Source of the DNA: Chamaelirium japonicum
Taxonomy: Eukaryota > Streptophyta > Magnoliopsida > Liliales > Melanthiaceae
NCBI GenBank assembly: GCA_947650365.1
Contig: OX393550.1
Coordinates: 121,274,374-121,338,373, forward strand
DNA length: 64,000 bases
Direction of reading: 5' to 3'
Under the pieces are notes generated by a model, which ran no database searches, was not told the origin of the DNA, and worked only from the letters and a program-made list of their open reading frames with translations. This document shows, piece by piece, positions 1-64,000 of this stretch; position 1 is the first letter of the stretch; every line of letters starts with the position of its first letter. A program made the translations under genes and the position numbers.

Positions 1-854
1 TTCATTCGTACGATCCATTCTAATTCATTCGCACGATCCATTCTAATTCATTAATACGATCCAATCTAATTCATTCATACGATCCATTCTAATTCATTCG
101 TACGATCCATTAGAATGGATCGTATGAATGAATTAGAATAGATTGTGCGAATGAATTAGAATGGATCGTACGAATGAATTAGAATGGATACATTCGTGCG
201 AATGAATTACAATGGATCGTATGAATGAATTAGAATCGATCGTACGAATGAATTAGAATGGATCATGCGAATGAATTAGAATGGATCGTGCGAATGAATT
301 AGAATGGATCGTACGAATGAAATATAATGGATTGTACGAATGAATTAGAATGGATACATTCATGCTAATGAATTAGAATGGATCATACGAATGAATTAGA
401 ATGGATTCATTCGTGCGAATGAATTAGAATGGATCGTACGAATGAGTAAGAATGGATCGTACGAATGAATTAGAATGGATTGAATTAGAATGAATCGTAC
501 GAATGAATTATAATGGATCGTACGAAGGAATTAGAATGGATCATACGAAGGAATTAGAATGGATAGTACGAATGAATTAGAATGGATACCTTCGTGCAAA
601 TGAATTAGAATGGATCGTACGAATGAGTAAGAATGGATCGTACGAATGAAATAGAATGGATCGTATGAATGAATTAGAATGGATCGTGCGAATGAATTAG
701 AATGGATCGTACGAATGAATTAGAATAGATTGTGCGAATGAATTAGAATGGATCATACGAATGAATTAGAATGGATCGTACGAATGAATTAGAATGGATC
801 GTATGAATGAATTAGAATGGATCGTGCGAATGAATTAGAATGGATCGTACGAAT

Positions 855-894
855 GAAATAGAATGGATTCGCACGAATGTATCCATTCTAATTC
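855..894 (+). repeat. type-1 switch junction
   Basis: Type-1 form: reverse monomer ending GAAATAGAATGG, then ATTCGCACGAATGTATCC, then forward ATTCTAATTC, 40 bp in all. This is the reference copy. Confidence 0.92.
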
Positions 895-2055
895 ATTCGT
901 ACGATCCATTCTAATTCATTCGTACAATCCATTCTAATTCATTCGCACGATCCATTCTTACTCATTCGTACGATCCATTCTAATTCATTCGCACGATCCA
1001 TTCTAATTCATTAATACGATCCATTCTAATTCATTCGCACGATCCATTCTAATTCATTCACACTCATACTATCCATTCTAATTCATTCGCACGAATGTAT
1101 CCTTTCTAATTCATTCGTACGATCCATTCTAATTCATTCGCACAATCTATTCTAATTCATTCGAACGATCCATTCTAAGTCATTCGTACGATCCATTCTA
1201 ATTCATTCGTACGATCCATTCTAATTCATTCGCACGATCCATTCTAATTCATTAATACGATCCAATCTAATTCATTCATACGATCCATTCTAATTCATTC
1301 GTACGATCCATTAGAATGGATCGTATGAATGAATTAGAATAGATTGTGCGAATGAATTAGAATGGATCGTACGAATGAATTAGAATGGATACATTCGTGC
1401 GAATGAATTACAATGGATCGTATGAATGAATTAGAATCGATCGTACGAATGAATTAGAATGGATCATGCGAATGAATTAGACTGGATCGTGCGAATGAAT
1501 TAGAATGGATCGTACGAATGAAATAGAATGGATTGTACGAATGAATTAGAATGGATACATTCATGCTAATGAATTAGAATGGATCATACGAATGAATTAG
1601 AATGGATTCATTCGTGCGAATGAATTAGAATGGATCGTACGAATGAGTAAGAATGGATCGTACGAATGAATTAGAATGGATTGAATTAGAATGAATCGTA
1701 CGAATGAATTACAATGGATCGTACGAAGGAATTAGAATGGATCATACGAAGGAATTAGAATGGATAGTACGAATGAATTAGAATGGATACCTTCGTGCAA
1801 ATGAATTAGAATGGATCGTACGAATGAGTAAGAATGGATCGTACGAATGAAATAGAATGGATCGTATGAATGAATTAGAATGGATCGTGCGAATGAATTA
1901 GAATGGATCGTACGAATGAATTAGAATAGATTGTGCGAATGAATTAGAATGGATCGTACGAATGAATTAGAATGGATCGTACGAATGAATTAGAATGGAT
2001 CGTATGAATGAATTAGAATGGATCGTGCGAATGAATTAGAATGGATCGTACGAAT

Positions 2056-2095
2056 GAAATAGAATGGATTCGCACGAATGTATCCATTCTAATTC
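2056..2095 (+). repeat. type-1 switch junction
   Basis: Identical to 855-894; it is the second copy made by the 1201-bp duplication. Confidence 0.92.
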
Positions 2096-4777
2096 ATTCG
2101 TACGATCTATTCTAATTCATTCGTACAATCCATTCTAATTCATTCCCACGATCCATTCGCATTCACTCAAACGATCCATTCTAATTCATTCATATGATCC
2201 ATTCTAATTCATTCGCACGAATGTATCCATTCTAATTCATTCGTACGATCCATTCTAATTCATTTGTACGAATGTATCCACTCTAATTCATTCATACGAT
2301 CCATTCTAATTCATTCGCACGAATGTATCCATTCCAATTCATTCGTACGATCCATTCTAATTCATTCGCACAATCTATTCTAATTCATTCGTACGATCTA
2401 TTCTAATTCATTAGCATGATCCATTCTAATTCATTCGTACGGTCTATTCTATTTCATTTGTACAATCCATTCTTACTCAATCGTATGATCCATTCTAATC
2501 CATTCGCACAATCTATTCTAATTCATTCGTACGATCCATTCTATTTCATTTGTACGATCCATTATAATTCATACGATCCATTCTACTTCATTCATACGAT
2601 CCGTTTTAATTCTTTCGCACGATCCATTCTAATTCATTCATACGATCCATTCTAATTCATTCGTACGATCCATTCTAATTTCTTCGTATGATCTATTCTA
2701 ATTCCTTCGTACGATCCATTCTAATTCCTTCGTACGATCCATTCAAATTCATTCGCACGAATCTATCCATTCTAATTCATTCGTACGATCCATTCTAATT
2801 CATTCGCACGATCCATTCTAATTCATTAATACGATCCAATCTAATTCATTCGTACGATCTATTCTAATTCATTCGCACGAATATATCCTTTCTAATTCAT
2901 TCGTATGATCCAAATTCATTTATCCGTACGATCTATTCTATTTCATTCGTACGATCCATTCTTATCCTACGATCCATTCTTATTCAATCTATTCTAATTC
3001 ATTCGTACGATCCATTCTAATTCATTCGTACGATCCATTCTAATTCATTCGTACGATTCATTCTAATTCAATCCATTCTAATTCATTCATACGATCCATT
3101 CTATTTCATTCGTACGATCCATTCTTACTCATTCGTACGATCCATTCGTATCCATTCTAATTCATTCGTACGATCTATTCTAATTCATTCGTACGATCCA
3201 TTCTAATTCCTTCGTACGATCCATGCTAATTCATTCGTACGATCCATTCTAATTCATTCGCACGATCCATTCTAATTCATTCGTATGATCCATTCTATTT
3301 CATTCATACGATCCATTCTAATTCATTCATACGATCTATTCTAATTCTTTCGTACGTTTCATTCTAATTCTAATTCATTCGTACGATCCATTCTAATTCC
3401 TTCGTACGATCCATTCTTACTTATTCGTACGATCCATTCTAATTCATTCGCATGAATGGATCCATTCTAATTCATTCGTATGATCCATTCTAATTCATTC
3501 GCATGAATGTATCCATTCTAATTCATTCGTACGATCCATTCTATCTCATTCGTACAATCCATTCTATTTCATTTGTATGATCCATTCTAATTCATTCGCA
3601 CGATCCATTCTAATTCATTCGCATGATCCATTCTAATTCATTCGTATGATCGATTCTAATTCATTCATACGATCCATTCTAATTCATTCGCACAAATGTA
3701 TCCATTCTAATTCATTCTTACGATCCATTCTAATTCATTCGTACGATCCATTCTTACTCATTCGTATGATCCATTCTAATTCATTCATACGATCCAATCT
3801 AATTCATTCATACGATCCATTCTAATTCATTCGCACAATCTATTCTAATTCATTCATACGATCCATTCTAATTTATTCGTACGATCCATTCTAATTCATT
3901 CATACGATCCATTCTAATTCATTCATATGATCCATTCTAATTCCTTCGTACTATCCATTCTAATTCATTCATACGATCCATTCTATTTCATTCGTACGAT
4001 CCATTCTTACTCATTCGTACGATCCATTCTAATTCATTTGCACGAAGGTATCCATTCTAATTCATTCGTACTATCCATTCTAATTCCTTCGTACGATCCA
4101 TTCTAATTGCTTCGTACGATCCATTCTAATTCATTCGTACGATCCATTCTAATTCATTCGCACGATCCATTCTAATTCATTCGCACGATCCATTCTAATT
4201 CATTAGCACGATCCATACTAATTCATTCGTACGATCCATTCTAATTCATTTATACGATCCAATCTAATTCATTCATACGATCCATTCTAATTCTTTCGCA
4301 CGAATGTATCCATTCTAATTCATTCTAATTCAATCCATTCTAATTCATTCGTACGATCCATTCTAATTCATTCGTACAATCCATTCTAATTCATTCGCAT
4401 AATCCATTCGCATTCACTCAAACGATTCATTCTAATTCATTCATATGATCCATTCTAATTCATTCGCACGAATGTATCCATTCTAATTCAGTCGTACGAT
4501 CCATTCTAATTCATTTGTACGAATGTATCCACTCTTATTCATTCATACGATCCATTATAATTCATTCGCACAAATGTATCCATTCCAATTCATTCGTACG
4601 ATCAATTCTAATTCATTCGCACAAATGTATCCATTCCAATTCATTCGTACGATCCATTCTAATTCATTCGCACGATCCATTCTAATTCATTCGTACGATC
4701 CAATCTAATTTATTCGTACGATCCATTCTAATTCATTCGTACGATCCATTCTATTTCATTCATACGATCCATTCTAA
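2068..4777 (+). repeat. forward satellite block
   Basis: 2.7 kb of uniformly forward monomers. It carries the marker monomer with GCATTCACTCAAACGATCC near 2157 and again near 4408, the GAAGGTATCC long unit near 4033, and a 240-bp stretch at 2416-2655 that recurs at 40618, 45313, 54473 and 62696. It ends near 4778 in two 10-base inverted arms, CCATTCTAAT and ATTAGAATGG, separated by two bases. Confidence 0.93.
2416..2655 (+). repeat. 240-bp dispersed satellite segment (one of about nine)
   Basis: Run of variant monomers (TTACTCAATCG, AATCCATTCGCAC and an 18-bp short unit near 2565). Copies lie near 40618, 45313, 52741, 54473 and 62696 forward, and near 37228, 60005 and 61572 reverse. It stays open in one frame because of CTATTTC cores. 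It is a useful landmark for dating copies. Confidence 0.82.
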
Positions 4778-6600
4778 TGAATTAGAATGGATTGAATTAG
4801 AATGAATCGTACGAATGAATTAGAAAGGATACATTCGTGCAAATGAATTAGAATGGATCGTATGAGTGTGAATGAATTAGAATGGATCATGCGAATGAAT
4901 TAGAATGGATCGTATTAATGAATTAGAAAGGATCGTGCGAATGAATTAGAATGGATCGTACGAATGAGTAAGAATGGATCGTGCGAATGAATTAGAATGG
5001 ATCATATGAATGAATTAGAATGGATCGTATGAATGAATTAGAATGGATCGTGCGAATAAATTAGAATGGATCGTATGAATGAATTAGAATAGATTGTGCG
5101 AATGAATTAGAATGGATCGTAAGAATGAATTAGAATAGATACATTCGTGCGAATGAATTAGAATGGATCGTATGAATGAATTAGAATCGATCGTACGAAT
5201 GAATTAGAATGGATCATGCGAATGAATTAGAATGGATCGTGCGAATGAATTAGAATGGATCGTACGAATGAAATAGAATGGATTGTACGAATGAGATAGA
5301 ATGGATCATACGAATGAATTAGAATGGATACATTCTTAGAATGGATCATACGAATGAATTAGAATGGATTCATTCGTGCGAATGAATTAGAATGGATCGT
5401 ACGAATGAGTAAGAACAGATCGTACGAATGAATTAGAATGTATTGAATTAGAATGAATCGTACGAATGAATTAGAATGGATCGTACGAATGAATTAGAAT
5501 GGATCGTATGAATGAAATAGAATGGATCGTACGAATGAATTAGAATGGATCGTACGAATGAATTAGAATGGATACATTCATGCGAATGAATTAGAATGGA
5601 TCGTATGAATGAATTAGAATCGATCGTACGAATGAATTAGAATGGATCATGCGAATGAATTAGAATGGATCGTGCGAATGAATTAGAATGGATCGTACGA
5701 ATGAAATAGAATAGATTGTACGAATGAGATAGAATGGATCGTACGAATGAATTAGAATGGATACATTCATGCGAATGAATTAGAATGGATCATACGAATG
5801 AATTAGAATGGATTCATTCGTGTGAATGAATTAGAATGGATCGTACGAATGAGTAAGAATGGATCGTACGAATGAATTAGAATGGATTGAATTAGAATGA
5901 ATCGTACGAATGAATTAGAATGGATCGTACGAATGAATTAGAATGGATCGTACGAGTGAATTAGAATGGATTGAATTAGAATGAATCGTACGAATGAATT
6001 AGAATGAATCATACCGTACGAATGAATTAGAATGGATCATACGAAAGAATTAGAATGGATCGTACGAATGAATTAGAATGGATCATACGAATGAGTAAGA
6101 ATGGATCGTACGAATGAAATAGAATGGATCGTATGAATGAATTAGAATGTATCGTGCGAATGAATTAGAATGGATACATTCGTGCGAATGAATTAGAATG
6201 GATCGTATGAATGAATTAGATTGGATCGTATGAATGAATTAGAATGGATCGTGCGAATGAATTAGAATGGATCGTACGAATGAATTAGAATGGATCGTTT
6301 GAATGAATTAGAATGGATCGTACTTATGAATTAGAATGGGTCATACGAATGAACTAGAATGGATCGTACGAAGGAATTAGAAAGGATCGTACAAATGAAT
6401 TAGAATGGATCGTATGAATGAAATAGAATAGATCGTACGAATGAATTAGAATGGATCGTATGAATGAATTAGATTGGATCGTATGAATGAATTAGAATGG
6501 ATTGTACGAATTAAATAGAATAGATCGTACGAATGAATTAGAATGGATCGTGCGAATGAATTAGAATGGGTCGTACGAATGAATTAGAATGGATACACGA
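4778..6600 (-). repeat. reverse satellite block
   Basis: 1.8 kb of reverse monomers with several 38-bp composites in which a 15-bp piece (GAATTAGAATGAATC) is joined to a full monomer. It includes one reverse copy of the GAATCATACCGTACG marker near 6006. It ends in a type-2 junction at 6587-6619. Confidence 0.93.
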
Positions 6601-6619
6601 TCCAGATCCATTCTAATTC
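6587..6619 (+). repeat. type-2 switch junction
   Basis: Reverse monomer then GGATACACGATCCAGATCC then forward core. It is preceded by the GAATGGGTC variant monomer. Confidence 0.9.
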
Positions 6620-7573
6620 ATTCACACAATCTATTCTAATTCATTCGTAGGATCCATTCTAATTCATTACTACGATCCATTCTAATTCATTCATACGATC
6701 CATTCTAATTCATTCGTACGATCCATTCTAATTCATTCGCACGATCCATTCTAATTCATTCATACGATCCATTCTAATTCATTGTATATATCCATTCTAA
6801 TTCATTCATACGATCTATTCTAATTCTACGATCCATTCTTACTCATTCGTATTATCCATTTTAATTCATTCACACGAATGTATCAACTCTAATTCATTCG
6901 TATGATCCATTCTAATTCATTCGCACGAATGTATCCATTCTAATTCATTCGTACGATCCATTCTAATTCATTCGTAATATCCATTCTAATTCATTCGTAT
7001 GATCCATTCTAATTCATTCGCACGAATGTATCCATTCTAATTCATTCGTACGATCCATTCTAATTCATTCGTACGATCCATTCTAATTCCTTCATATGAT
7101 CCATTCTAATTCATTCGCACGAATGTATCCATTCTAATTCATTCGTACGATCCATTCTAATTCATTCGTACGATCCATTCTAAATCCTTCGTATGATCCA
7201 TTCTAATTCATTCGTACGATCAATTCTAATTTATACGATCCATTCTAATTCATTCGCACAATCTATTCTAATTCATTCGTACGATCCATTCTAAATCATT
7301 CGCACGAATGTATCCATTCTAATTCATTCGTACGATCCATTCTAATTCATTCATACGATCCATTCTAATTTATTCGCATGAATGTATCCATTCTAATTCA
7401 TTCGTATGATCCATTCTAATTCATTCGCACAATCTATTCTAATTCATTCATACGATCCATCCTAATTTATTCGCATGAATGTATCCATTCTAATTCATTC
7501 GTACAATCCATTCTATTTCATTCGTACGATCCATTCTTACTCATTCGTACGATCCATTCTTACTTATTCGTAC
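6601..7573 (+). repeat. forward satellite block
   Basis: About 1 kb of forward monomers, rich in GCAC-type hinges followed by the 28-bp GAATGTATCC unit. The switch to reverse near 7573 falls at a degraded hinge (GTACAAAGG) and has no counterpart that I found elsewhere. Confidence 0.92.
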
Positions 7574-10500
7574 AAAGGAATTAGAATGGATCGTACGCAG
7601 GAATTAGAATGGTTTGTACGAAGGAATTAGAATGGATCGTACGAATGAATTAGAATGGATACATTCGTGCGAATGAATTAGAATGGATCGTACGAGTGAG
7701 TAAGAATGGATCGTACGAATAAAATAGAATGGATCGTACGGATAAATTAGAATGGATCGTGCGAATGAATTAGAATGGATCGTACGAATGAGTAAGAATG
7801 GATCGTATGAATGAATTAGAATGGATCGTGCGAATAAATTAGAATGGATCGAACGAATGAATTAGAATGGATCATACGAATGAATTAGAATGGATCGTAT
7901 GAATGAATTAGAATGGATCGTGCGAATGAATTAGAATGGTTTATATGAATGAAATAGAATGGATCATACGAATGAAATAGAATGGATCGTACGAAGGAAT
8001 TAGAATGGATCGTATGAATGAATTAGAGTGGATACATTCGTGCGAATGAATTCGAATAGATCGTGCGAATGAATTAGAATGGATTGTACAAATGAATTAG
8101 AATGGATCGTACGAATGAAATAGAATGGATCGTACGAATGAATTAGAATGGATACATTCGTGCAAAAGAAATAGAATGGATTGTATGAATGAATTAGAAT
8201 GGATCGTGTGAATGAATTAGAATGGATCATACGAATGAATTAGAATGGATACATTCGTGCGAATGAATTAGAATGGATCGTGCGAATGAATTAGGATGGA
8301 TCGTATGAATGAATTAGAATAGATTGTGCGAATGAATTAGCATGGATCGTACGAATGAATTAGAATGGATACATTCATGCGAATGAATTTGAATGGTTCG
8401 TATGAATGAATTAGAATGGATCGTATGAGTGAATTAGAATGGATACGAAGGAATTAGAATGGATCGTAAGAAGGAATTAGAATGGAGAATGAATCGTGCG
8501 AATGAATTAGAATGGATCGTGCGATAAGAATGGATCGTACGAATGAAATAGAATAGATCGTACGGATAAATGAATTTGGATCATGCTAATGAATTAGAAT
8601 GGATCGTACGAATGAATTAGAATTGATCGTACTAATGAATTAGAATAGATTGTGCGAATGAATTTGAATGGATCGTACGAATGAATTAGAAAGGATATAT
8701 TCGTGCGAATGAATTAGAATAGATCGTATGAATGAATTAGATTGGATCGTATTAATGAATTAGAATGGATCGTGCGAATGAATTAGAGTGGATCGTACGA
8801 ATGAATTAGAATGGATCGTACGAATGAGTAAGAATGGATTGTACGAATGAAACAGAATGGATCGTATGAATGAATTAGAATGGATCGTATGAATGAATTA
8901 GAATGGATCGTGCGAATGAATTAGAATAGATTGTACGAATGAATTAGAATAGATTGTGCGAATGAATTAGAATGGATCGTACGAATGAATTAGAATGGAT
9001 CGTATGAATGAATTAGAATGGATCGTGCGAATGAATTAGAATGGATCGTACGAATGAATTAGAATGGATCGAACGAATGAATTAGAATGGATACATTCGT
9101 GCAAAAGAATTAGAATGGATTGTATGAATGAATTAGAATGGATCGTGCGAATGAATTAGAATGGATCGTACGAATGAATTAGGATGGATACATTCGTGCG
9201 AATGAATTAGAATGGATCGAATGAATTAGAGTTGATACATTCGTGTGAATGAATTAAAATGGATAATACGAATGAGTAAGAATGGATCGTAGAATTAGAA
9301 TGGATCGTATGAATGAATTAGAATGGATCGTACGAATGAATTAGAATGGATACATTCGTGCGAATGAATTAGAATGGATCAAACGAATGAATTAGAATGG
9401 ATCGAACGAATGAATTAGAATGGATCATACGAATAAATTAGAATGGATCGTATGAATGAATTAGAATGGATCGTGCGAATGAATTAGAATGGATTATATG
9501 AATGAAATAGAATGGATCATACGAATGAAATAGAATGGATCGTACGAAGGAATTAGAATGGATCGTATGAATGAATTAGAGTGGATACATTGAATGAATT
9601 AGAGTGGATACATTCGTACAAATGAATTAGAATGGATCGTATGAATGAATTAGAATGGATCGTATGAATGAATTAGAATGGATCGTGCGAATGAATTAGA
9701 ATGGATCGTACGAATGAATTAGAATGGATCGAACGAATGAATTAGAATGGATACATTCGTGCAAAAGAATTAGAATGGATTGTATGAATGAATTAGAATG
9801 GATCGTGCGAATGAATTAGAATGGATCGTACGAATGAATTAGAATGGATACATTCGTGCGAATGAATTAGAATGGATCATATGAATGAAATAGAATGGAT
9901 TGTACGAATGAGATAGAATGGATCGTACGAATGAATTAGAATGGATACATTCATGCGAATGAATTAGAATGGATCATACGAATGAATTAGAATGGATTCA
10001 TTCGTGCGAATGAATTAGAATGGATCGTACGAATGAGTAAGAATGGATCGTACGAATGAATTAGAATGGATTGAATTCGAATGAATCGTACGAATGAATT
10101 AGAATGGATCGTACGAATGAATTAGAATGGATCGTATTAATGAATTAGAATGGATCGTTCGAATGAATTAGAATGGATCGTACGAATGAGTAAGAATGGA
10201 TTGTGCGAATGAATTAGAATGGATCATATGAAAGAATTAGAATGGATTGTACGAATGAATTAGAATGGATCGTACGAATGAATTAGAATGGATACATTCG
10301 TGCGAATGAATTAAAATGGATCGTATGAATGAATTAGATTGGATCATATGAATGAATTAGAATGGATCGTGCGAATGAATTAGAATGGATCGTACGAATG
10401 AATTAGAATGGATCGTACGAATGAATTAGAATGGATCGTACGAATGAATTAGAATATATCGTATGAATTAGAATGGATCGTACGAAGGAATTAGAATGGA

Positions 10501-10993
10501 TCGTATGAATGAATTAGATTGGATCGTATTAATGAATTTGAATGGATCGTATGAATAAATTAGATTGGATCGTATGAATGAATTAGAATGGATCTTGCGA
10601 ATGAATTAGAATGGATCGTACGAATGAAATAGAATGGATTGTATGAAAGAATTAGAATAGATCGTGCGAATGAATTAGAATGGATCGTACGAATGAATTA
10701 GAATGGATCATATGAATGAATTAGAATGGATCGTACGTATGAATTAGAATGGATCGTGCGAATGAATTAGATTGGATCGTATGAATGAATTAGAGTAGAT
10801 ACATTCGTACGAAGGAATTAGAATGGATCGTACGAATGAATTAGAATGGATTATATGAATGAATTAGAATGGATTGTACTAATGAATTAGAATGGATACA
10901 TTCGTGCGAATGAATTAGAATGGATTATACGAATAAATTAGAATGGATCGTACGAATCAATTAGAATAGATTGTACGAATGAATTAGAATGGA
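7574..10993 (-). repeat. longest reverse satellite block
   Basis: 3.4 kb without an orientation change. 8000-8230 is one of four copies of a distinctive 231-bp stretch (others at 24382-24612 forward, 42620-42850 reverse and 63128-63358 reverse). It leaves to forward near 10993 through GTACGTCGAATTC, the only reverse-to-forward junction in the window that is not one of the three recurrent types, although its right side resembles type 3. Confidence 0.93.
8000..8230 (-). repeat. 231-bp dispersed satellite segment (copy 1 of 4)
   Basis: Distinctive run of about ten monomers that stays open for 76 codons. Near-identical copies lie at 24382-24612 (+), 42620-42850 (-) and 63128-63358 (-). The open frame only reflects variant cores (CTATTTC) at every third monomer. 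I treat it as a landmark of block copying, not a gene. Confidence 0.85.
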
Positions 10994-12203
10994 TCGTACG
11001 TCGAATTCATTCGTACGATCCATTCTAATTCATTCATACAATCCATTCTACTTCTTTTGCACGAATGTATCCATTCTAGTTCATTCGTACGACCCATTCT
11101 AATTCATTCGCACGATCCATTCTAATTCATTCGTACGATCTATTCTATTTCATTCGTACAATCCATTCTAATTCATTCATACGATCCAATCTAATTCATT
11201 CATACGATCCACTCTAATTCATTCATACGATCTATTCTATTTCATTCATACGATCCATTCTAATTCGTTTGTACGATCCTTTCCAATTCCTTCGTACGAT
11301 CCATTCTATTTCATTCGTATGACCCATTCTAATTCATAAGTACGATCCATTCTAATTCATTCAAACGATCCATTCTAATTCATTCGTACGATCCGTTCTA
11401 ATTCATTCGCACGATCCATTCTAATTCATTCATACGATCCAATCTAATTCATTCATACGATCCATTCTAATTCATTCGCACGAATGTATCCATTCTAATT
11501 CATTCGCACGATCCATTCTAATTCATTCATACGATCCATTCTATTTCATTCGTACGATCCATTCTTACTCATTCGTACGATCCATTCTAATTCATTTGCA
11601 CGAAGGTATCCATTCTAATTCATTCGTACTATCCATTCTAATTCCTTCGTACGATCCATTCTAATTCCTTCGTACGATCCATTCTAATTCATTCGTACGA
11701 TCCATTCTAATTCCTTCGTATGATCCATTATAATTCATTCGTACGGTATGATTCATTCTAATTCATTCGTACGATTCATTCTAATTCAATCCATTCTAAT
11801 TCATTCGTACGATCCATTCTAATTCATTCGTACGATCCATTCTAATTCATTCGTACGAATGAATTAGAATGGATCGTACGAATGAATTAGAATGGATTGA
11901 ATTAGAATAAATCGTACGAATGAATTAGAATGAATCATACCGTACGAATGAATTAGAATGGATCATACGAATGAATTAGAATGGATACATTCGTACGAAT
12001 GAATTAGAATGGATCGTACGAATGAAATAGAATGGATTGTACGAATGAGATAGAATGGATCGTACAAATGAATTAGAATGGATACATTCATGCGAATGAA
12101 TTAGAATGGATCATACGAATGAATTAGAATGGATTGAATTAGAATGAATCGTACGAATGAATTAGAAAGGATCGTACGAATGAATTAGAATGGATACATT
12201 CGT
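10994..12203. repeat. inverted satellite pair with arms offset by one monomer
   Basis: Forward to 11854, then reverse to about 12203. The switch lies exactly in the hinge between 11854 and 11855 and is the centre of a perfect palindrome with 43-base arms. Beyond that the arms continue to match after a shift: the marker GGTATGATTC near 11746 on the left pairs with GAATCATACC on the right near 11932. From the centre, the left arm to the marker edge (11741) is 114 bases and the right arm (to 11945) is 91, a difference of exactly 23. This is an inverted duplication with one monomer gained or lost in one arm. Confidence 0.9.
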
Positions 12204-12221
12204 GCGAATCCATTCTATTTC
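12182..12221 (-). repeat. type-1 switch junction, inverted
   Basis: Exact reverse complement of 855-894, so the whole junction region is inverted here. Confidence 0.92.
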
Positions 12222-47539: not shown

Positions 47540-47579
47540 GAATTAGAATGGATACATTCGTGCGAATCCATTCTATTTC
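47540..47579 (-). repeat. type-1 switch junction, inverted
   Basis: Exact inverted copy, flanked on its left by less than two reverse monomers. Confidence 0.92.
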
Positions 47580-51809: not shown

Positions 51810-51849
51810 GAATTAGAATGGATACATTCGTGCGAATCCATTCTATTTC
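51810..51849 (-). repeat. type-1 switch junction, inverted
   Basis: Exact inverted copy, preceded by the GTTTGAGTGAATGCG marker. Confidence 0.92.
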
Positions 51850-53472
51850 ATTCGTACGATCCATTCTAATTCATTCGCACGATCCATTCTAATTCATTCA
51901 TACGATCCATTCTAATTCATTCGTACGATCCATTCTAATTCATTCGTACGATCCATTCTAATTCATTCGCACGAATGTATCCATTCCAATTCATTCGTAC
52001 GATCCATTCTAATTCATTCGCACAATCTATCCTTTCTAATTCATTCGTACGATCCATTCTAATTCATTCGCACAATCTATTCTAATTCATTCGACCGATC
52101 CATTCTAATTCATTAGCATGATCCATTCTAATTCATTTGTACGATCTATTCTATTTCATTCGTACGATCCATTCTAATTCATTCATACAATCCATTCTAT
52201 TTCATTCGTACGATCCATTCTTACTCATTCGTACGATCCATTCGTATCCATTCTAATTTATTCGTACGATCTATTCTAATTCATTCGTACGATCCATTCT
52301 AATTCATTAATACGATCCAATCTAATTCATTCATACGATCCATTCTAATTCATTCGTACGATCCATTCTAATTCATTCGTACGATCCATTCTATTTCATT
52401 CGTACGATCCATTCTAATTCATTCGCACGATCCATTCTAATTCATTCATACGATCCATTCTATTTCATTCGTACGATCCATTCTTACTCATTCGTACGGT
52501 CCATTCTAATTCATTTGCACGAAGGTATCCATTCTAATTCCTTCGTACGATCCATTCTAATTCCTTCGTACGATCCATTCTAATTCATTTGTAGGAATGT
52601 ATCCACTCTAATTCATTCATACGATCCATTCTAATTCATTCGCACGAATGTATCCATTCCAATTCATTCGTATGATCCATTCTATTTCATTCACACAATC
52701 TATTCTAATTCATTCGTACGATCAATTCTAATTCATTAGCATGATCCATTCTAATTCATTCGTACGATCTATTCTATTTCATTCGTACAATCGTATGATC
52801 TATTCTAATCCATTCGCACAATCTATTATAATTCATTCGTACGATCCATTCTATTTTATTCGTACGATCCATTCTAATTCATACGATCCATTCTATTTCA
52901 TTCATACGATCCATATTCTAATTCATTCGTACGATCCATTCTAATTCCTTCGTATGATCCATTCTAATTCATTCGTACGGTATGATTCATTCTAATCCAT
53001 TCATACGATTCATTCTAATTCAATCCATTCTAATTCATTCGTACGATCCATTCTAATTCATTCGTAGGATCCATTCTAATTCCTTCGTACGATCCATTCT
53101 AATTCCTTCGTACGATCCATTCTTACTCATTCGTACGATCCATTCTAATTCATTCGCACGAATGTATCCATTCTAATTCATTCGTACGATCCATTCTAAT
53201 TCATTCATACGATCCATTCTAATTCTACGATCCATTCTAATTTATTTGTACGATCCATTCTAATTCCTTCGTACGATCCATATTCTAATTCATTCGCACG
53301 ATCCATTCTAATGAATCAGAATGGATCGTATGAATGAATTAGAATGGATCGTGCGAATGAATTAGAATGGATCATATGAATGAATTAGAATGGATCGTTT
53401 GAGTGAATGCAATGGATGGTGCGAATGAATTAGAATGGATTGTACGAATGAATTAGAATGGATCGTACGAAT

Positions 53473-53512
53473 GAATTAGAATGGATACATTCGTGCGAAT
53501 CCATTCTATTTC
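53473..53512 (-). repeat. type-1 switch junction, inverted
   Basis: Exact inverted copy, 1663 bp after the previous one, with similar flanks. Confidence 0.92.
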
Positions 53513-56055
53513 ATTCGTACGATCCATTCTAATTCATTCGCACGATCCATTCTAATTCATTCATACGATCCATTCTAATTCATTCATACGATCCATTCTA
53601 ATTCATTCGTACGATCCATTCTAATTCATTCGCACGAATGTATCCATTCCAATTCATTCGTACGATCCATTCTAATTCATTCGCACAATCTATCCTTTCT
53701 AATTCATTCGTACGATCCATTCTAATTCATTCGCACAATCTATTCTAATTCATTCGAACGATCCATTCTAATTCATTAGCATGATCCATTCTAATTCATT
53801 CGTACGATCTATTCTATTTCATTCGTACGATCCATTCTAATTCATTCATACAATCCATTCTATTTCATTCGTACGATCCATTCTTACTCATTCGTACGAT
53901 CCATTCATATCCATTCTAATTCATTCGTACGAACTATTCTAATTCCTTCGTACGATCCATTCTAATTCATTAATACGATCCAATCTAATTCATTCGTACG
54001 ATCCATTCTAATTCATTCGTACGATCCATTCTAATTCATTCGTACGATCCATTCTAATTCATTCGTACGATCCATTCTAATTCATTCGCACAATCGATTC
54101 TAATTCATTCGTACGATCCATTCTAATTCATTCGCACGATCCATTCTAATTCATTCATACGATCCATTCTATTTCATTCGTACGATCCATTCTTACTCAT
54201 TCGTACGATCCATTCTAATTCATTTGCACGAAGGTATCCATTCTAATTCATTCGTATTATCCATTCTAATTGCTTCGTACGATCCATTCTAATTCCTTCG
54301 TACGATCCATTCTAATTCATTTGTACGAATGTATCCACTCTAATTCATTCATACGATCCATTCTAATTCATTCGCACGAATGTATCCATTCCAATTCATT
54401 CGTACGATCCATTCTAATTCATTCGCACAATCTATTCTAATTCATTCGTACGATCAATTCTAATTCATTAGCATGATCCATTCTAATTCATTCGTACGAT
54501 CTATTCTATTTCATTCGTACAATCCATTCTTACTCAATCGTATGATCTATTCTAATCCATTCGCACAATCTATTCTAATTCATTCGTACGATCCATTCTA
54601 TTTCATTCGTACGATCCATTCTAATTCATACGATCCATTCTATTTCATTCATACGATCCATTTTAATTCATTCGCACGATCCATTCTAATTCATTCATAC
54701 GATCCATTCTAATTCATTCGTACGATCCATTCTAATTTCTTCGTATGATCTATTCTAATTCCTTCGTACGATCCATTCTAATTCCTTCGTACGATCCATT
54801 CAAATTCATTCGCACGAATCTATCCATTCTAACCATTCTAATTCATTCGTACGGTATGATTCATTCTAATTCATTCGTACGATTCATTCTAATTCAATCC
54901 ATTCTAATTCATTCGTACGATCCATTCTAATTCATTCGTACGATCCATTCTAATTCATTCGTACGATTCATTCTAATTCAATCCATTCTAATTCATTCGT
55001 ACGATCCATTCTTACTCATTCGTACGATCCATTCTAATTCATTCGCACGAATGAATCCATTCTAATTCATTCGTATGATCCATTCTAATTCATTCGCATG
55101 AATGTATCCATTCTAATTCATTCGTACGATCCATTCTATCTCATTCATACAATCCATTCTATTTCATTCGTACGATCCATTCTAATTCATTCGTACGATC
55201 CATTCTAATTCCTTCGTATGATCCATTCTAATTCATTCGTACGGTATGATTCATTCTAATTCATTCGTACGATCCAATCTAATTCATTCGCACAATCTAT
55301 TCTTATCCATTCTAATCTATTCTATTTCATTCGTGGATCGTATGAATGAATTATAATGGATCATGCGAATGAATTAGAATAGATCATACGAATGAATTAG
55401 AATGGATCGTACGAATGAATTAGAATGGATACATTCGTGCAAAAGAATTAGAATGGATTGTATGAATGAATTAGAATGGATCGTGCGAATGAATTAGAAT
55501 GGATACATTCGTGCGAATGAATTAGAATAGATCGTATGAATGAATTAGAATGGATCGTGCGAATGAATTAGAATGGATCGTACGAATGAATTAGAATGGA
55601 TCGTACGAATGAATTAGAATGAATCATACCGTACGAATGAATTAGAATGGATCATACGAAGGAATTAGAATGGATCGTACGAATGAATTAGAATGGATCG
55701 TATGAATGAATTAGAACGGATCGTACGAACGAATTAGAATGGATCGTACGAAGGAATTAAAATGGATATTACGAATGAATTAGAATGGATACCTTCGTGC
55801 AAATGAATTAGAATGGATCGTACGAATGAGTAAGAATGGATCGTACGAATGAAATAGAATGGATCGTATGAATGAATTAGAATGGATCGTGCGAATGAAT
55901 TAGAATGGATCGTACGAATGAATTAGAATAGATTGTGCGAATGAATTAGAATGGATCGTACGAATGAATTAGAATGGATCGTACAAATGAATTAGAATGG
56001 ATCGTATGAATGAATTACAGGATCGTGCTAATGAATTAGAATGGATCGTACGAAT

Positions 56056-56095
56056 GAAATAGAATGGATTCGCACGAATCTATCCATTCTAATTC
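56056..56095 (+). repeat. type-1 switch junction, one substitution
   Basis: Same junction with GAATCTATCC in place of GAATGTATCC. Confidence 0.88.
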
Positions 56096-57535
56096 ATTCG
56101 TACGATCCATTCAAATTCATTCGCACGAATCTATCCATTCTAATTCATTCGTACGATCCATTCTAATTCATTCGCACGATCCATTCTAATTCATTAATAC
56201 GATCCAATCTAATTCTTTCATATGATCAATTCTAATTCATTCGCACGAATATATCCTTTCTAATTCATTCGTACGATCCATTCTAATTCATTCGCACAAT
56301 CTATTCTAATTCATTAGTACGATCCATTCTAATTCATTCGTACGATCCATTCTAATTCATTAGCACGATCCAAATTCATTTATCCGTACGATCTATTCTA
56401 TTTCATTCGTACGATCCATTCTTATCGCACGATCCATTCTAATTCATTCGCACGATCCATTCTCCATTCTAATTCCTTCGTACGATCCATTCTAATTCCT
56501 TCGTATCCATTCTAATTCACTCATACGATCAATTCTAATTCATTCATACGATCCATTCTAATTCATTCGTATGAATGTATCCATTCTAATTCATTCGTAC
56601 GATCCATTCTAATTCATTCGCACAATCTATTCTAATTCATTCATACGATCCATCCTAATTCATTCGCACGAATGTATCCATTCTAATTCATTCGTACAAT
56701 CCATTCTATTTCATTCGTACGATCCATTCTTACTCATTCGTACGATCCATTCGTATCCATTCTAATTCATTCGTACGATCTAATCTAATTCATTCGTACG
56801 ATCCATTCTAATTCATTAATACGATCCAATCTAATTCATTCATACGATCCATTCTAATTCAGTCGCACGATCCATTCTAATTCATTCGCACGATCCATTC
56901 TAATTCATTCGTACGATCCATTCTAATTCATTCGCACGATCCATTCTAATTCATTCGCACGAATGTATCCATTCTAATTCATTCGTATGATCCATTCTAA
57001 TTCATTCACATGATCCATTCTAATTCATTCATATAATCAATTCTATTTCTTTTGCACGAATGTATCCATTCTAATTCATTCGTACGATCCATTCTATTTC
57101 ATTCGTACGATCCATTCTAATTCATTCGTACAATCCATTCTAATTCATTCGCACGATCTATTCGAATTCATTCGCACGAATGTATCCACTCTAATTCATT
57201 CATACGATCCATTCTAATTCCTTCGTACGATCCATTCTATTTCATTCGTATCATCCATTCTATTTCATTCATATAATCCATTCTAATTCATTCGCACGAT
57301 CCATTCTAATTCATTCATACGTACGATTGAGTAAGAATGGATCGTACGAATGAATTAGAATGGATCGTACGAAGGAATTAGAATGGATCGTATGAATGAA
57401 TTAGAATGGATCGTATGAATGAAATAGAATGGATCGTACGAATGAATTAGAATGGATCGTGCGAATGAATTAGAATGGACCATACGAATGAATTAGAATG
57501 GATCGTACGAAGGAATTAGAATGGATCGTACGAAT

Positions 57536-57743
57536 GAATTAGAAAGGATACATTCGAATTCATTCGTACGATCCATTCTAATTCCTTCGTACGATCCATA
57601 TTCAAATTCATTCGCACGATCCATTCTAATTCATTCGCACGATCCATTCTAATTCATTCATAAGATCCATCCTAATTCATTCACACAGTCCATTCTAATT
57701 CATTCTAATTTATTCGTATGTGAGTGGATCGTGTTTTTTCGTA
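57536..57743 (-). repeat. A-tract module, inverted
   Basis: Second inverted module, spacing 180 bp. Together with 39144-39351 it is followed by a type-1 junction 848 bp (here) or 917 bp (there) after the T-tract, a difference of 69 bp, three monomers. Confidence 0.9.
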
Positions 57744-58580
57744 CTAATGAATTAGAATGGATCGTACGAATGAATTACAATGGATCATATGAATGAATTA
57801 GAATGGATCATATAAATGAATTAGAATGGATCGTGCGAATAAATTAGAATGGATCATGCGAATGAATTAGAATGGATCGTGCGAATGAATTAGAATGGAT
57901 CGTACGAATGAAATAGAATGGATTGTACGAATAAGATAGAATGGATCGTACGAATGAATTAGAATGGATACATTCATGCGAATGAATTAGAATGGATCAT
58001 ACGAATGAATTAGAATGGATTCATTTGTGCGAATGAAATAGAATGGATCGTACGAATTAGTAAGAATGGCTCGTACGAATGAATTAGCATGGATTGAATT
58101 AGAATGAATCGTACGAATGAATTAGAATGGATCGTACGAATGAATTAGAATGGATTGAATTAGAATGAATCGTACGAATGAATTAGAATGAATCATACCG
58201 TACGAATGAATTAGAATGGATCATACGAAGGAATTAGAATGGATCGTACGAATGAATTAGAATGGATCGTACGAAGGAATTAGAATGGATCGTACGAAAG
58301 AATTTGAATGGATAGTACGAATGAATTAGAATGGATATCTTCGTGCAAATGAATTAGAATGGATCGTATGAATGAGTAAGAATGGATCGTACGAATGAAA
58401 TAGAATAGATCGTATGAATGAATTAGAATGGATCGTGCGAATGAATTAGAATGGATCGTACGAATGAATTAGAATAGATTGTGCGAATGAATTAGAATGG
58501 ATCGTACGAATGAATTAGAATGGATCGTACGAATGAATTAGAAAGGATCGTGCGAATGAATTAGAATGTATCGTACGAAT

Positions 58581-58620
58581 GAAATAGAATGGATTCGCAC
58601 GAATGTATCCATTCTAATTC
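58581..58620 (+). repeat. type-1 switch junction
   Basis: Identical to 855-894; downstream monomer order matches 40258 onward. Confidence 0.92.
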
Positions 58621-60564
58621 ATTCGTACGATCCATTCTAATTCATTCGTACAATCCATTCTAATTCATTCGCACGATCCATTCGCATTCACTCAAACGAT
58701 CCATTCTAATTCATTCATATGATCCATTCTTATTCATTCGTACGAATGTATCCATTCTAATTCATTCGTACGATCTATTCTAATTCATTTGTACGAATGT
58801 ATCCACTCTAATTCATTCATACGATCCATTCTAATTCATTCGCACGAATGTATCCATTCCAATTCATTCGTACGATCCATTCTAATTCATTCGCATAATC
58901 TATTCTAATTCATTCGTGCGATCAATTCTAATTCATTAGCATGATCCATTCTATTTCATTCGTACGATCTATTCTATTTCATTCGTACAATCCATTCTTA
59001 CTCAATCGTATGATCCATTCTAATCCATTCGCACAATCTATTCTAATTCATTCGTACGATCCATTCTATTTCATTCGTACGAATGAATTAGAATGGATCG
59101 TACGAATGAAATAGAATGGATCGTATGAATGAATTAGAATGGATCGTGCGAATGAATTCGAATGGATCGTACGAATGAATTAGAATAGATTGTGCGAATG
59201 AATTTGAATGGATCGTACGAATGAATTAGAATGGATCGTACGAATGAATTAGAATGGATCGTACGAATGAATTAGAATGGATACATTCGTGCGAAAGAAT
59301 TAGAATGGATCGTATGAATGAATTAGATTGGATCATACGAATGAATTAGAATGGATCGTACGAATGAATTAGAATGGATCGTATGAATGAATTAGAATGG
59401 ATCGTGCGAATGAATTAGAATGGATCGTGCGAATGAATTAGAATGGATCGTACGAATGAATTAGAATGGATCGTATGAATGAATTAGAATGGATACATTC
59501 GTGCGAAAGAATTAGAATGGATCGTATGAATGAATTAGATTGGATCTTACGAATAAATTAGAATGGTACGAATGAATTAGAATGGATCGTATGAATGAAT
59601 TAGAATGGATCGTGCGAATGAATTAGAATGGATCGTGCGAATGAATTAGAATGGATCGTACGAATGAATTAGAATGGATCGTATGAATGAATTAGATTGG
59701 ATCATATTAATGAATTAGAATGGATCGTACGAATGAATTAGAATAGATCGTACGAATGAATTAGAATGGATACGAATGGATCGTACGAATGAGTAAGAAT
59801 GGATCGTACGAATGAAATAGAATAGATTGTACGAATGAATTAGAATGGATCGTACGAATGAATTAGAATGGATTGTGCGAATGAATTAGAATGGATCGTA
59901 CGAATGAATTAGAATGGATAGATTCGTGCGAATGAATTTGAATGGATCGTACGAAGGAATTAGAATGGATCATACGAAGAAATTAGAATGATCGTACGAA
60001 TGAATTAGAATGGATCGTATGAATGAATTAGAATGGATCGTGCGAATGAATTAAAATGGATCGTATGAATGAAATAGAATGGATCGTAGGAATTAGAATG
60101 GATCGTACGAATGAAATAGAATGGATCGTACGAATGAATTAGAATAGATTGTGCGAATGGATTAGAATGGATCATACGATTGAGTAAGAATGGATTGTAC
60201 AAATGAAATAGAATAGATCGTACGAATGAATTAGAATGGATTATGCTAATGAATTAGAATTGATCGTACGAATGAATTAGAATAGATTGTGCGAATGAAT
60301 TAGAATGGATCGTACGAATGAATTGGAAAGGAATCATTCGTGCGAATGAATTAGAATGGATCGTATGAATGAATTAGAGTGGATACATTCGTACAAATGA
60401 ATTAGAATGGATCGTACGAATGAATTAGAATGGATACATTCGTGCGAATGAATTAGAATGGATCATATGAATGAATTAGAATGGATCGTTTGAGTGAATG
60501 CGAATGGATCGTGCGAATGAATTAGAATGGATTGTACGAATGAATTAGAATGGATCGTACGAAT

Positions 60565-60604
60565 GAATTAGAATGGATACATTCGTGCGAATCCATTCTA
60601 TTTC
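60565..60604 (-). repeat. type-1 switch junction, inverted
   Basis: Exact inverted copy, preceded by the GTTTGAGTGAATGCG marker. Confidence 0.92.
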
Positions 60605-62089
60605 ATTCGTACGATCCATTCTAATTCATTCGCACGATCCATTCTAATTCATTCATACGATCCATTCTAATTCATTCGTACGATCCATTCTAATTCATTC
60701 GTACGATCCATTCAAATTCATTCGCACAATCTATTCTAATTCATTCGTACGATCCATTCGAATTCATTCGCACGATCCATTCTAATTCATTCATACGATC
60801 CATTCTATTTCATTCGTACGATCCATTCTTACTCATTCGTACGATCCATTCTAATTCATTTGCACGAAGGTATCCATTCTAATTCATTCGTACTATCCAT
60901 TCTAATTCCTTCGTACGATCCATTCTAATTCCTTCGTACGATCCATTCTAATTCATTCGTACGATCCATTCTAATTCATTCGTACGATCCATTCTAATTC
61001 CTTCGTATGATCCATTCTAATTCATTCGTACGGTATGATTCATTCCAATTCATTCGTACGATTCATTCTAATTCAATCCATTTTAATTCATTCGTACGAT
61101 CCATTCTATATCATTCGTACGATCCATTCTAATTCATTCGTACGATTCATTCTAATTCAATCCATTCTAATTCATTCGTACGATCCATTCTTACTCATTC
61201 GTACGATCCATTCTAATTCATTCGTACGATCCATTCTAATTCATTTGTACGAATGTATCCACTCTAATTCATTCATACGATCCATTCTAAATCATTCGCA
61301 AGAATGTATACATTCCAATTCATTCGTACGATCCATTCTAATTCATTCGCACAATCTATTCTAATTCATTCGTACGATCAATTCTAATTCATTAGCATTA
61401 TCCATTCTAATTCATTCATACTTATGAATGGATCATACGAATGAATTAGAATGGATACATTCGTGCAAAAGAAAATAGAATGGATTGTATGAATGAATTA
61501 GAATGGATCGTGTGAATGAATTAGAATGGATCATACGAATGAATTAGAATGGATACATTCGTGCGAATGAATTAGAATGGATCGTGCGAATGAATTAGAA
61601 TCGATCGTACGAATGAATTAGAATGGATCATACGAATGAAATAGAATGGATCGTACCAATGAATTAGAATAGATTGTGCGAATGGATTAGAATGGATCAT
61701 ACGATTGAGTAAGAATGGATTGTACGAATGAAATAGAATAGATCGTACGAATGAATTAGAATGGATCATGCTAATGAATTAGAATTGATCGTACGAATGA
61801 ATTAGAATAAATTGTGCGAATGAATTAGAATGGATCGTACGAATGAATTGGAATGGATACATTCATGCGAATGAATTAGAATGGATCGTATGAATGAATT
61901 AGAGTGGATACATTCGTACAAATGAATTAGAATGGATCGTACGAATGAATTACAATGGATACATTCGTGCGAATGAATTAGAATGGATCATATGAATGAA
62001 TTAGAATGGATCGTTTGAGTGAATGCGAATGGATCGTGCGAATGAATTAGAATGGATTGTACGAATGAATTAGAATGGATCGTACGAAT

Positions 62090-62129
62090 GAATTAGAATG
62101 GATATATTCGTGCGAATCCATTCTATTTC
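62090..62129 (-). repeat. type-1 switch junction, inverted, one substitution
   Basis: Inverted copy with GATATATTCG in place of GATACATTCG. Confidence 0.9.
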
Positions 62130-63650
62130 ATTCGTACGATCCATTCTAATTCATTCGCACGATCCATTCTAATTCATTCGTACGATCCATTCTAATTCAT
62201 TCGTACGATCCATTCTAATTCATTCGTACGATCCATTCTAATTCATTCGCACAATCTATTCTAATTCATTCGTACGATCCATTCTAATTCATTCGCACGA
62301 TCCATTCTATTTCATTCGTACGATCCATTCTTACTCATTCGTACGATCCATTCTTACTCATTCGTACGATCCATTCTAATTTATTTACACGAAGGTATCC
62401 ATTCTAATTCATTCGTACTATCCATTCTAATTCCTTCGTACGATCCATTCTAATTCATTCATACGATCCATTCTAATTCATTCGTACGATTCATTCTAAT
62501 TCAATCGATTCTAATTCATTAATACGATCCATTCTAATTCATTCGCACGATCCATTCTAATTCACTCACACTCATACGATCCATTCTAATTCATTCGCAC
62601 GAATGTATCCTTTCTAATTCATTCGTACGATCCATTCTAATTCATTCGCACAATCTATTCTAATTCATTCGAACGATCCATTCTAATTCATTAGCATGAT
62701 CCATTCTAATTCATTCATACGATCTATTCTATTTCATTCGTACAATCCATTCTTACTCAATCGTATGATCCATTCTAATCCATTCGCACAATCTATTCTA
62801 ATTCATTCGTACGATCCATTCTATTTCATTCGTACGATCCATTCTAATTCATACGATCCATTCTATTTCATTCATACGATCCATTTTAATTCATTCGCAC
62901 GATCCATTCTAATTCATTCATACGATCCATTCTAATTCATTCGCACGAATGAATCCATTCTAATTCATTCATATGATCCATTCTAATTCATTCGCATGAA
63001 TGTATCCATTCTAATTCATTCGTACGATCCATTCTATCTCATTCGTCGTGCGAATGAATTAGAATGGATTATATGAATGAAATAGAATGGATCATACGAA
63101 TGAAATAGAATGGATCGTACGAAGGAATTAGAATGGATCGTATGAATGAATTAGAGTGGATACATTTGTGCGAATGAATTCGAATAGATCATGCGAATGA
63201 ATTAGAATGGATTGTACGAATGAATTAGAATGGATCGTACGAATGAAATAGAATGGATCGTATGAATGAATTAGAATGGATACATTCGTGCAAAAGAAAT
63301 AGAATGGATTGTATGAATGAATTAGAATGGATCGTGTGAATGAATTAGAATGGATCATACGAATGAATTAGAATTGATACATTCGTGCGAATGAATTAGA
63401 ATGGATCGTGCGAATGAATTAAAATGGATCGTACGAATGAATTAGAATGGATCGTTTGAATGAATTAGAATGGATCGTGCGAATTAATTAGAATGGATCG
63501 TGCGAATGAATTAGAATGGATCGTACGAATGAATTAGAATGGATCATATGAATGAATTAGATTGGATCGTATTAATGAATTAGAATGAATCATACCGTAC
63601 GAATAATTTAGAATGGATCATACGAAGGAATTAGAATGGATCGTTCGAAT

Positions 63651-63690
63651 GAATTAGAATGGATACATTCGTGCGAATCCATTCTATTTC
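63651..63690 (-). repeat. type-1 switch junction, inverted
   Basis: Exact inverted copy; the left flank differs from 60565 and 62090 (a GAATCATACC marker lies close by). Confidence 0.92.
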
Positions 63691-64000
63691 ATTCGTACGA
63701 TCCATTCTAATTCATTCGCACGATCCATTCTAATTCATTCATACGATCCATTCTAATTCATTCGTACGATCCATTCTAATTCATTCGTACGATCCATTCT
63801 AATTCATTCGTACAATCTGTTCTAATTCATTCGTATGATCCCTTCTAATTCATTCGCACGATCCATTCTAATTCATTCATACGATCCATTCTATTTCATT
63901 CGTACGATCCATTCTTACTCATTCGTACGATCCATTCTAATTCATTTGCACGAAGGTATCCATTCTAATTCATTCGTACTATCCATTCTAATTCCTTCGT

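What the first reader, a model, noticed from the sequence alone, without database searches (positions are those of the whole stretch)
1..64000. Satellite array with about 59 strand switches and only three reverse-to-forward seam types
I placed 30 reverse-to-forward and 29 forward-to-reverse switches. Of the 30, 17 are type 1, 4 are type 2, 8 are type 3 and one is unique (10993). Forward-to-reverse seams are mostly one-off. A head-to-tail satellite grown by unequal crossover should not do this. The inference is that the copied unit is a self-inverted block centred on a seam, pasted in either orientation with new outer edges.
Basis: partly seen in the sequence, partly recalled or inferred. Interest (0 to 1): 0.85.

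Follow-up and report, generated by a model that had tools for sequence, protein, structure and literature searches.

The report
Copied centromere block with orientation barcode
A 23-letter repeat in what are almost certainly the centromeres of the plant Chionographis japonica flips direction about sixty times in this stretch, and the order of the flips is kept at other places on other chromosomes, so the flips mark out large blocks of centromere DNA that were copied in either direction.

Summary
In detail: 59 strand switches; 30 of one polarity (FR) fall into three types (17, 8, 4) plus one unique, while the 29 of the other (RF) are mostly unique within the window. The DNA is the Chio1/Chio2 holocentromere satellite of Chionographis japonica, whose alternating orientation is already published. 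FR copies share descent, in both orientations, with variable edges. But the seam is not a special centre: other array segments have similar copy number and similar decay of similarity. And 'one-off' RF seams recur elsewhere: one has 46 exact places genome-wide, and 10-kb loci on C3 and C10 repeat the window's seam order, inverted, at about 98% substitution identity over their first 7 kb. Landmarks spanning 28 kb are collinear at 12 places, 54 kb at seven (C2, C3, C10), in both orientations. I read the window as one copy of a large block, built by short-tract copying and later copied whole between centromere units. The FR/RF asymmetry is real in this array family (P = 6e-8), absent in the C1 sample, and not fully explained. 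No raw reads were available.

The parts
1..16043 (.). Chio1/Chio2 satellite array, alternating orientation (left part)
   Evidence: monomer matches published Chio
16044..21403 (-). LTR retroelement inserted in the array: terminal repeats at 16044-16365 and 21054-21375, gag-like ORF 19684-20964 on the minus strand
   Evidence: 6 mismatches in 322 aligned bases of the terminal repeats; Retrotrans_gag, E 4.9e-8
21404..64000 (.). Chio1/Chio2 satellite array, alternating orientation (right part). All 29 RF seams (last base of the left run): 108, 1309, 4789, 7565, 11847, 22854, 25468, 27675, 27964, 30907, 31567, 33595, 35238, 38700, 39313, 41187, 44389, 46896, 47522, 48741, 49890, 50998, 53309, 55333, 57315, 57705, 59071, 61421, 63045
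849..888 (-). FR seam type 1
2050..2089 (-). FR seam type 1
6578..6617 (+). FR seam type 2
10981..11020 (.). FR seam, unique in the window
12190..12229 (+). FR seam type 1
22644..22683 (-). FR seam type 1
23023..23062 (+). FR seam type 1
25701..25740 (-). FR seam type 3
27814..27853 (-). FR seam type 3
30206..30245 (-). FR seam type 1
31278..31317 (-). FR seam type 1
32099..32138 (+). FR seam type 3
34774..34813 (+). FR seam type 1
37743..37782 (+). FR seam type 2
39145..39184 (+). FR seam type 3
40252..40291 (-). FR seam type 1
43914..43953 (-). FR seam type 3
45058..45097 (+). FR seam type 2
47058..47097 (-). FR seam type 3
47548..47587 (+). FR seam type 1
48903..48942 (-). FR seam type 3
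50229..50268 (-). FR seam type 2
51818..51857 (+). FR seam type 1; same slot in L034 and L035
53481..53520 (+). FR seam type 1; same slot in L034 and L035
56050..56089 (-). FR seam type 1; same slot in L034 and L035
57537..57576 (+). FR seam type 3; same slot in L034 and L035
58575..58614 (-). FR seam type 1; same slot in L034 and L035
60573..60612 (+). FR seam type 1; same slot in L035
62098..62137 (+). FR seam type 1
63659..63698 (+). FR seam type 1
7546..7585 (+). RF seam used as landmark 7565 (the least specific of the four)
   Evidence: 560+633 matches genome-wide at <=3 mismatches; the only exact one is here
33576..33615 (+). RF seam used as landmark 33595
   Evidence: 286+283 matches genome-wide at <=3 mismatches
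53290..53329 (.). RF seam conserved in order in L034 and L035
55314..55353 (+). RF seam used as landmark 55333; 46 exact places of the 39-mer genome-wide, this one included
57296..57335 (.). RF seam conserved in order in L034 and L035
57706..57737 (-). 32-bp non-satellite insert in an RF seam; family also at 27676-27707, 39314-39353 (-), 46897-46928, 48742-48773, 50999-51017; type-3 FR seam 149-181 bp from the RF seam in 5 of 6
   Evidence: 1149+1086 matches genome-wide at <=3 mismatches
61402..61441 (+). RF seam used as landmark 61421
   Evidence: 14+29 matches genome-wide at <=3 mismatches
11829..11870 (.). RF seam at the natural monomer dyad TTCGTACGAA; also at 22854, 27964, 31567, 59071; flanks of the five not shared beyond background, so probably independent origins (59071 joins 108/1309 in the descent clustering)

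Best explanation
The window is one copy of a block of about 54 kb or more of Chio1/Chio2 holocentromere satellite. Stage 1 (inferred): in an ancestral array, tracts of roughly 0.1 to 1 kb were copied and re-inserted in both orientations. Three founder F-to-R junctions were carried along inside such tracts; a tract with F at one end and R at the other, joined into a one-strand stretch, must leave one new R-to-F joint, and part of those joints used the self-complementary TTCGTACGAA dyad of the monomer. Stage 2 (shown at the level of seam landmarks in the assembly, and by sequence for two 10-kb loci): the finished block, with its fixed order of seams, was copied in either orientation to other centromere units on several chromosomes. 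The seams are therefore an orientation barcode of copied blocks, not marks of a seam-centred mobile unit. Whether the block moved by interlocus gene conversion or break-induced copying between clustered centromeres, or through extrachromosomal DNA, is not shown.
For: FR copies share flanks by descent. Copy number and decay of similarity around FR seams are close to those of other segments, so copying is array-wide and short-tract (copying-model mosaic, median 185 bp at 98.1% identity with own-family sequence versus 116 bp at 95.2% with a C1 panel). RF joints: 8 of 37 (C2/C6/C9 loci) and 6 of 26 (C1 loci) independent representatives have their axis at the dyad, about 1.6 and 1.1 expected; FR 0 of 8 and 2 of 20. 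Stage 2: RF seams recur genome-wide; landmark pairs found close together keep order and strand in 26 of 26, 13 of 13, 14 of 14, 10 of 11, 14 of 16 and 16 of 18 cases; L034 and L035, both inverted, repeat the seam order of window 51.8-60.6 kb at 97-99% substitution identity per 500 bases over about the first 7 kb. Same-slot T1 arms in different block copies are more alike (96.6%, n 12) than different slots inside a copy (94.6%, n 18), which makes block copying the later event.
Against: A symmetric short-tract copy-paste process does not give the FR/RF asymmetry (0 of 3600 runs), and the C1 arrays lack it, so stage 1 needs an unexplained polarity or a limited donor pool in this family. Most landmark places are unpaired: 42 of 68 places of 55333 have no 61421 in order within 12 kb, and 53 of the 66 exact 33595 places used have no 55333 in order within 35 kb, so many copies are partial. 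Arm lengths between corresponding seams differ between block copies (1246, 1157 and 1878 bp in one case), one RF seam of L035 differs, and the tenth seam of L034 matches only as a dyad seam at a different distance. Overall identity is 97.7% (L034) and 94.8% (L035) with 1280 and 1696 gap columns, and the best BLAST piece, gaps counted, is 91.6%. L034 and L035 were chosen because they carry landmark 55333. Everything rests on one assembly; no reads.
Confidence: 0.6

Rival explanations
1. One reading: the copied unit is a short self-inverted block centred on an FR seam, pasted in either orientation, each paste making new outer edges (RF seams).
For: FR types are copies by descent in both orientations with copy-specific edges, which are RF seams on 14 of 34 type-1 arms; every such paste would add one copied FR and one new RF seam, which fits the counts and is not given by symmetric copying.
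Against: Arms are not clearly inverted copies of each other; FR seams are not a special centre; several RF seams are ordered landmarks shared by other block copies. It could still describe stage 1 in the ancestral array.
Confidence: 0.25
2. Unstable RF seams: FR and RF seams arise equally, but RF seams are fragile and are broken and rejoined often, so each looks unique, while FR seams persist.
For: Part of the RF seams lie at the dyad; exact palindromes of 12 bp or more at 7 of 37 and 9 of 26 representatives, null 6%.
Against: The median RF palindrome is 6 bp, null median 4; several RF seams are conserved in order across block copies; no asymmetry in the C1 loci.
Confidence: 0.08
3. Independent strand switching at sequence hot spots makes the same seam types again and again.
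For: Five RF seams at the monomer dyad have unrelated flanks, so this probably does happen for that one RF class.
Against: FR types share flanks above background and the chance that two FR seams are of one type is 0.39.
Confidence: 0.03
4. Assembly artefact: false inverted joins in a satellite assembly.
For: No reads could be examined; large inverted pairs such as those on C3 are the kind of structure that misassembly can mimic; the assembly is larger than the published 1C size.
Against: The same seam order occurs on different chromosomes and contigs with different arm lengths; the authors report the orientation mixture from an assembly with 58.5x HiFi coverage.
Confidence: 0.07

Closest known systems
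Chio1/Chio2 holocentromere satellite of Chionographis japonica (Kuo et al. 2023, PMC10264360: abstract, sections 8 and 14 and found passages seen)
   Same: 23- and 28-bp monomers, dyad symmetry, forward and reverse arrays mixed in each centromere unit; assembly size and contig number close to this genome
   Different: What I read does not describe seam types, conserved seam order, or block copies between units; figures and supplements not seen
Chama satellite of Chamaelirium luteum (Kuo et al. 2025, PMC12722358, passages seen)
   Same: Shares the 9-bp TTCGTACGA with Chio; centromeric satellite of the sister genus
   Different: 60-bp monomer, arrays consistently oriented with higher-order repeats over hundreds of kb
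Higher-order repeats of satellite arrays
   Same: A multi-kb unit made of diverged monomers is copied as a whole
   Different: Here the unit contains many strand switches and is copied in both orientations and between chromosomes; the only direct multi-kb pair I saw in the window is the 1201-bp one at its left end
Inversions inside human alpha, beta and HSat arrays (recalled; only the search listings seen)
   Same: Strand switches inside satellite arrays
   Different: As recalled, far fewer per Mb; not tested here

Membership tests
Chio1/Chio2 centromeric satellite | 23-bp monomer with 28-bp variant (5-bp difference) containing TTCGTACGA | tested here: met
   published description
Chio1/Chio2 centromeric satellite | Most abundant repeat, published as 16.11% of the genome | tested here: met
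   8,996,603 matches at <=2 mismatches, about 207 Mb or 13.6% of 1,518,659,071 bases, diverged monomers not counted
Chio1/Chio2 centromeric satellite | Mixed forward and reverse arrays | tested here: met
Chio1/Chio2 centromeric satellite | Binds CENH3 | not testable with these tools
   published ChIP-seq only
   3/146 FR, 4/147 RF above null 99th percentile
Higher-order repeat | Ordered multi-monomer unit repeated as a whole | tested here: met
   seam order in L034, L035 and landmark pairs
Higher-order repeat | Head-to-tail tandem arrangement of the unit | tested here: inconclusive
   copies occur in both orientations; some neighbours are direct (two on C10 146 kb apart), others opposite (C3)

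The most novel reading that the evidence does not exclude
The strand-switch order is a barcode showing that the scattered centromere units of a holocentric plant were seeded or refreshed by wholesale, orientation-independent copying of blocks of about 54 kb or more between non-homologous chromosomes, with inverted duplication at work at every scale: the monomer dyad, kb-sized seams, and opposed block copies a quarter of a megabase apart.
Probability: 0.45. Interest if true: 0.78.

Novelty: new variant of a known kind. Interest (0 to 1): 0.6.

Why it matters
How centromere units came to be distributed along Chionographis chromosomes is stated to be unknown in the 2025 paper (passage seen). Near-identical satellite monomers usually carry little usable phylogenetic signal, but rare seam landmarks and their order do: they let one ask which unit was copied from which, in what orientation and over what length. 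It also separates two processes that are usually mixed: short-tract copying inside an array and later block transfer between arrays.

Tried and rejected
Fold-back origin of seams (recent palindromes): arms tested, few above null. Edit-distance clustering of seams over all loci: single linkage merges unlike types at loose thresholds because monomers are alike, so flank identity was added; one search is still single linkage, and its large C1 clusters visibly merge different seams, so only its singletons are leaned on. A regex search for type cores returned only part of the copies and was not used. Extension lengths against an in-phase control were confounded by the array's own repeats; windowed identity was used instead. 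Phase continuity at mosaic junctions (111 of 125) is no better than at other positions (1848 of 2000), so it says nothing. My working conclusion that RF seams are fresh joints was overturned by their copies elsewhere; my note that window copies are more alike than block copies came from an identity that counts gaps and was overturned. In checking this report I withdrew a claim of palindrome arms of 0.58 Mb on C3: the landmark positions fit a tandem copy of an inverted pair equally well. Paper searches found nothing; others gave listings; passages of a mouse T2T paper (PMC12597820) were seen and not used.

Counts and selection: landmark lists are what the searches printed: 68 of 68 places for 55333, 43 of 43 for 61421, the 66 exact places of 569 for 33595 (100 printed), and 64 of the 100 printed (of 1193) for 7565; the rest were not used. 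Seams within 40 bases of a locus end were dropped before clustering. The 420 comparison segments are at regular 97-base steps from 294 to 56651, cut at 420 of 471; the 60 markers were drawn at random from those with 4-20 other copies, and its 12 FR markers are the first with at least 4. Thirteen of the 20 C1 regions were placed at exact type-1 hits; L028 held no satellite and L014 no seam. L032 and L033 were found through a type-1 variant, L034 and L035 through landmark 55333.
Full report
What it is. The window lies at C2:121274374-121338373 of a 1,518,659,071-base, 3253-contig genome. Apart from a 5.36-kb LTR retroelement at 16044-21403 it is a 23-bp satellite with a 28-bp variant. Monomer, the 9-bp TTCGTACGA, abundance and assembly size match Chio1/Chio2, the holocentromere satellite of Chionographis japonica (PMC10264360: abstract, sections 8 and 14, found passages; PMC12722358: passages). 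That Chio arrays alternate in orientation is therefore already published; the species is my identification, not a label of the genome.

The observation. Strand segmentation gives 30 F-to-R (FR) and 29 R-to-F (RF) switches. The FR seams form clusters of 17, 8, 4 and 1, both orientations pooled, at all three thresholds and by shared descent. The RF seams form 22 descent clusters with 20 singletons of 29; by edit distance alone they form 18, 14 or 9 clusters, depending on the threshold. The largest descent family, six copies, carries a 32-bp insert.

Copies or hot spots? In-phase 120-bp segments of the window are 84.2% identical on average (234 pairs, 99th percentile 92.2%). Flanks 25-125 bp from the seam are 96.4% (type 1 right), 98.5% (type 2 right) and 94.7% (type 3 left), so FR types are copies by descent; the other arms are lower on average (type 1 left 87.7%, type 2 left 92.8%, type 3 right 88.1%), as expected if some copies lost the arm close to the seam. 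Five RF seams at the monomer dyad have flanks of 71-89% and look independent, although one of them, 59071, joins 108 and 1309 in the descent clustering. Among independent RF representatives the dyad axis is used 8 of 37 times in C2/C6/C9 loci and 6 of 26 in C1 loci, against 1.6 and 1.1 expected; for FR it is 0 of 8 and 2 of 20. The shared type-1 arm ends at an RF seam on 10 of 17 left and 4 of 17 right arms.

Is the seam the centre of a unit? Sharing between copies decays to background by 400-600 bp from the seam, but nearly the same decay is seen around 60 markers away from seams (0.64, 0.45, 0.29, 0.21, 0.14, 0.10, 0.07 versus 0.66, 0.51, 0.37, 0.25, 0.19, 0.11, 0.07 for 12 FR markers). One-hundred-bp segments have a mean of 4.56 other copies in the window at <=2 edits at 420 regularly spaced places, 6.07 at 30 FR seams and 0.41 at 29 RF seams; at <=4 edits 11.3, 9.93 and 0.86. 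FR seams behave like other array sequence; RF seams are the exception. The arms of a seam are not clearly inverted copies of each other.

Elsewhere in the genome. Types 1, 2 and 3 have 17253, 5625 and 8074 matches at <=3 mismatches, with no match to the reversed control patterns. In the C1 loci, 13 of 20 of which were placed at exact type-1 hits, type 1 and other seam types recur in both polarities, with singletons 13/90 FR and 15/90 RF, P = 0.84; no exact type 2 or 3 is listed on C1. In the window plus C2, C6 and C9 loci it is 4/56 and 29/57, P = 2.5e-7. L032 and L033 were found through a type-1 variant, so their type-1 content is biased, but not their RF seams.

The turn. The 39-mer of the 'one-off' RF seam at 55333 has 68 matches at <=3 mismatches, 46 of them exact, on C2, C3, C4, C6-C12 and smaller contigs. 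Two such places, L034 on C3 and L035 on C10, both inverted relative to the window, carry the same ordered seams as window 51.8-60.6 kb: in L034 nine of ten clearly and the tenth only as a dyad seam at another distance, in L035 ten of eleven. Substitution identity is about 97-99% per 500 bases over the first 7 kb and lower beyond; overall 97.7% and 94.8% with 1280 and 1696 gap columns. Where landmarks 7565, 33595, 55333 and 61421 lie near each other (within 1.6-2 times the window distance) they keep order and strand in 26/26, 13/13, 14/14, 10/11, 14/16 and 16/18 pairs; most landmark places are unpaired, so many copies are partial. Twelve places, the window included, have the last three landmarks collinear (C2, C3, C8, C10, C150, C237), seven of them also the first (C2, five on C3, C10), in both orientations. 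Landmark 7565 is the least specific: only the window's is exact, and 1193 places match at <=3 mismatches. The span from first to last landmark is about 54 kb.

Order of events. Same-slot type-1 arms in different block copies are 96.6% identical (n 12), different slots within a copy 94.6% (n 18), different slot and copy 94.7% (n 36); RF flanks are 94-100% between copies. So the short-tract copying of FR types probably came first and block copying later. On C3 four block copies stand + - + - at 71.70, 71.95, 72.62 and 72.86 Mb, the two opposed pairs 243 and 245 kb apart and mirrored about 72.284 Mb. These are landmark positions only: a tandem copy of an inverted pair fits them as well as a larger palindrome does, and a one-base variant shared by the outer two copies is the only hint for the palindrome.

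What remains unexplained. A symmetric copy-paste simulation gives about equal fractions of unique FR and RF seams and never the observed difference in 3600 runs. Either the donor tracts of this family carried FR but hardly any RF seams, or joining was polar; the C1 loci suggest that it is not a general property of the monomer.

Novelty. Alternating orientation is known. Two papers in the library hold both 'Chio1' and the species name: PMC10264360, and PMC12295485, which I did not read. In what I read of PMC10264360 and PMC12722358 no seam types or block barcode are described. I did not see figures or supplements.

Noticed in passing
C3:71.6-73.0 Mb (landmark positions): Four block copies stand + - + -, two opposed pairs 243 and 245 kb apart, mirrored about 72.284 Mb: a tandem copy of an inverted pair, a larger palindrome, or a misassembly. 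All seven exact or near-exact 55333 places between 70.8 and 73.5 Mb alternate in strand.
   Followed up: partly
window 27676-27707, 39314-39353, 46897-46928, 48742-48773, 50999-51017, 57706-57737: A 32-bp non-satellite insert sits in an RF seam and has a type-3 FR seam 149-181 bp away in five of six places; 2235 matches genome-wide at <=3 mismatches.
   Followed up: partly
window 16044-21403: LTR retroelement with a gag-like ORF on the minus strand and internal tandem repeats of 146, 76 and 78 bp; no obvious target-site duplication at its satellite edges; terminal repeats differ at 6 of 322 bases.
   Followed up: partly
L017, L019, L025, L027 (C1): C1 loci have a seam repertoire of their own, with an ordered run of seams shared, by eye, between places at 17, 75 and 135 Mb.
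   Followed up: partly
L030:4114-7379: A direct repeat with a 2042-bp offset containing two RF and two FR seams in each copy, just left of the window.
   Followed up: no
window 1-2102: A 1201-bp direct pair at 99.5-99.6% identity with an RF and an FR seam in each copy, the most alike local duplication seen.
   Followed up: no
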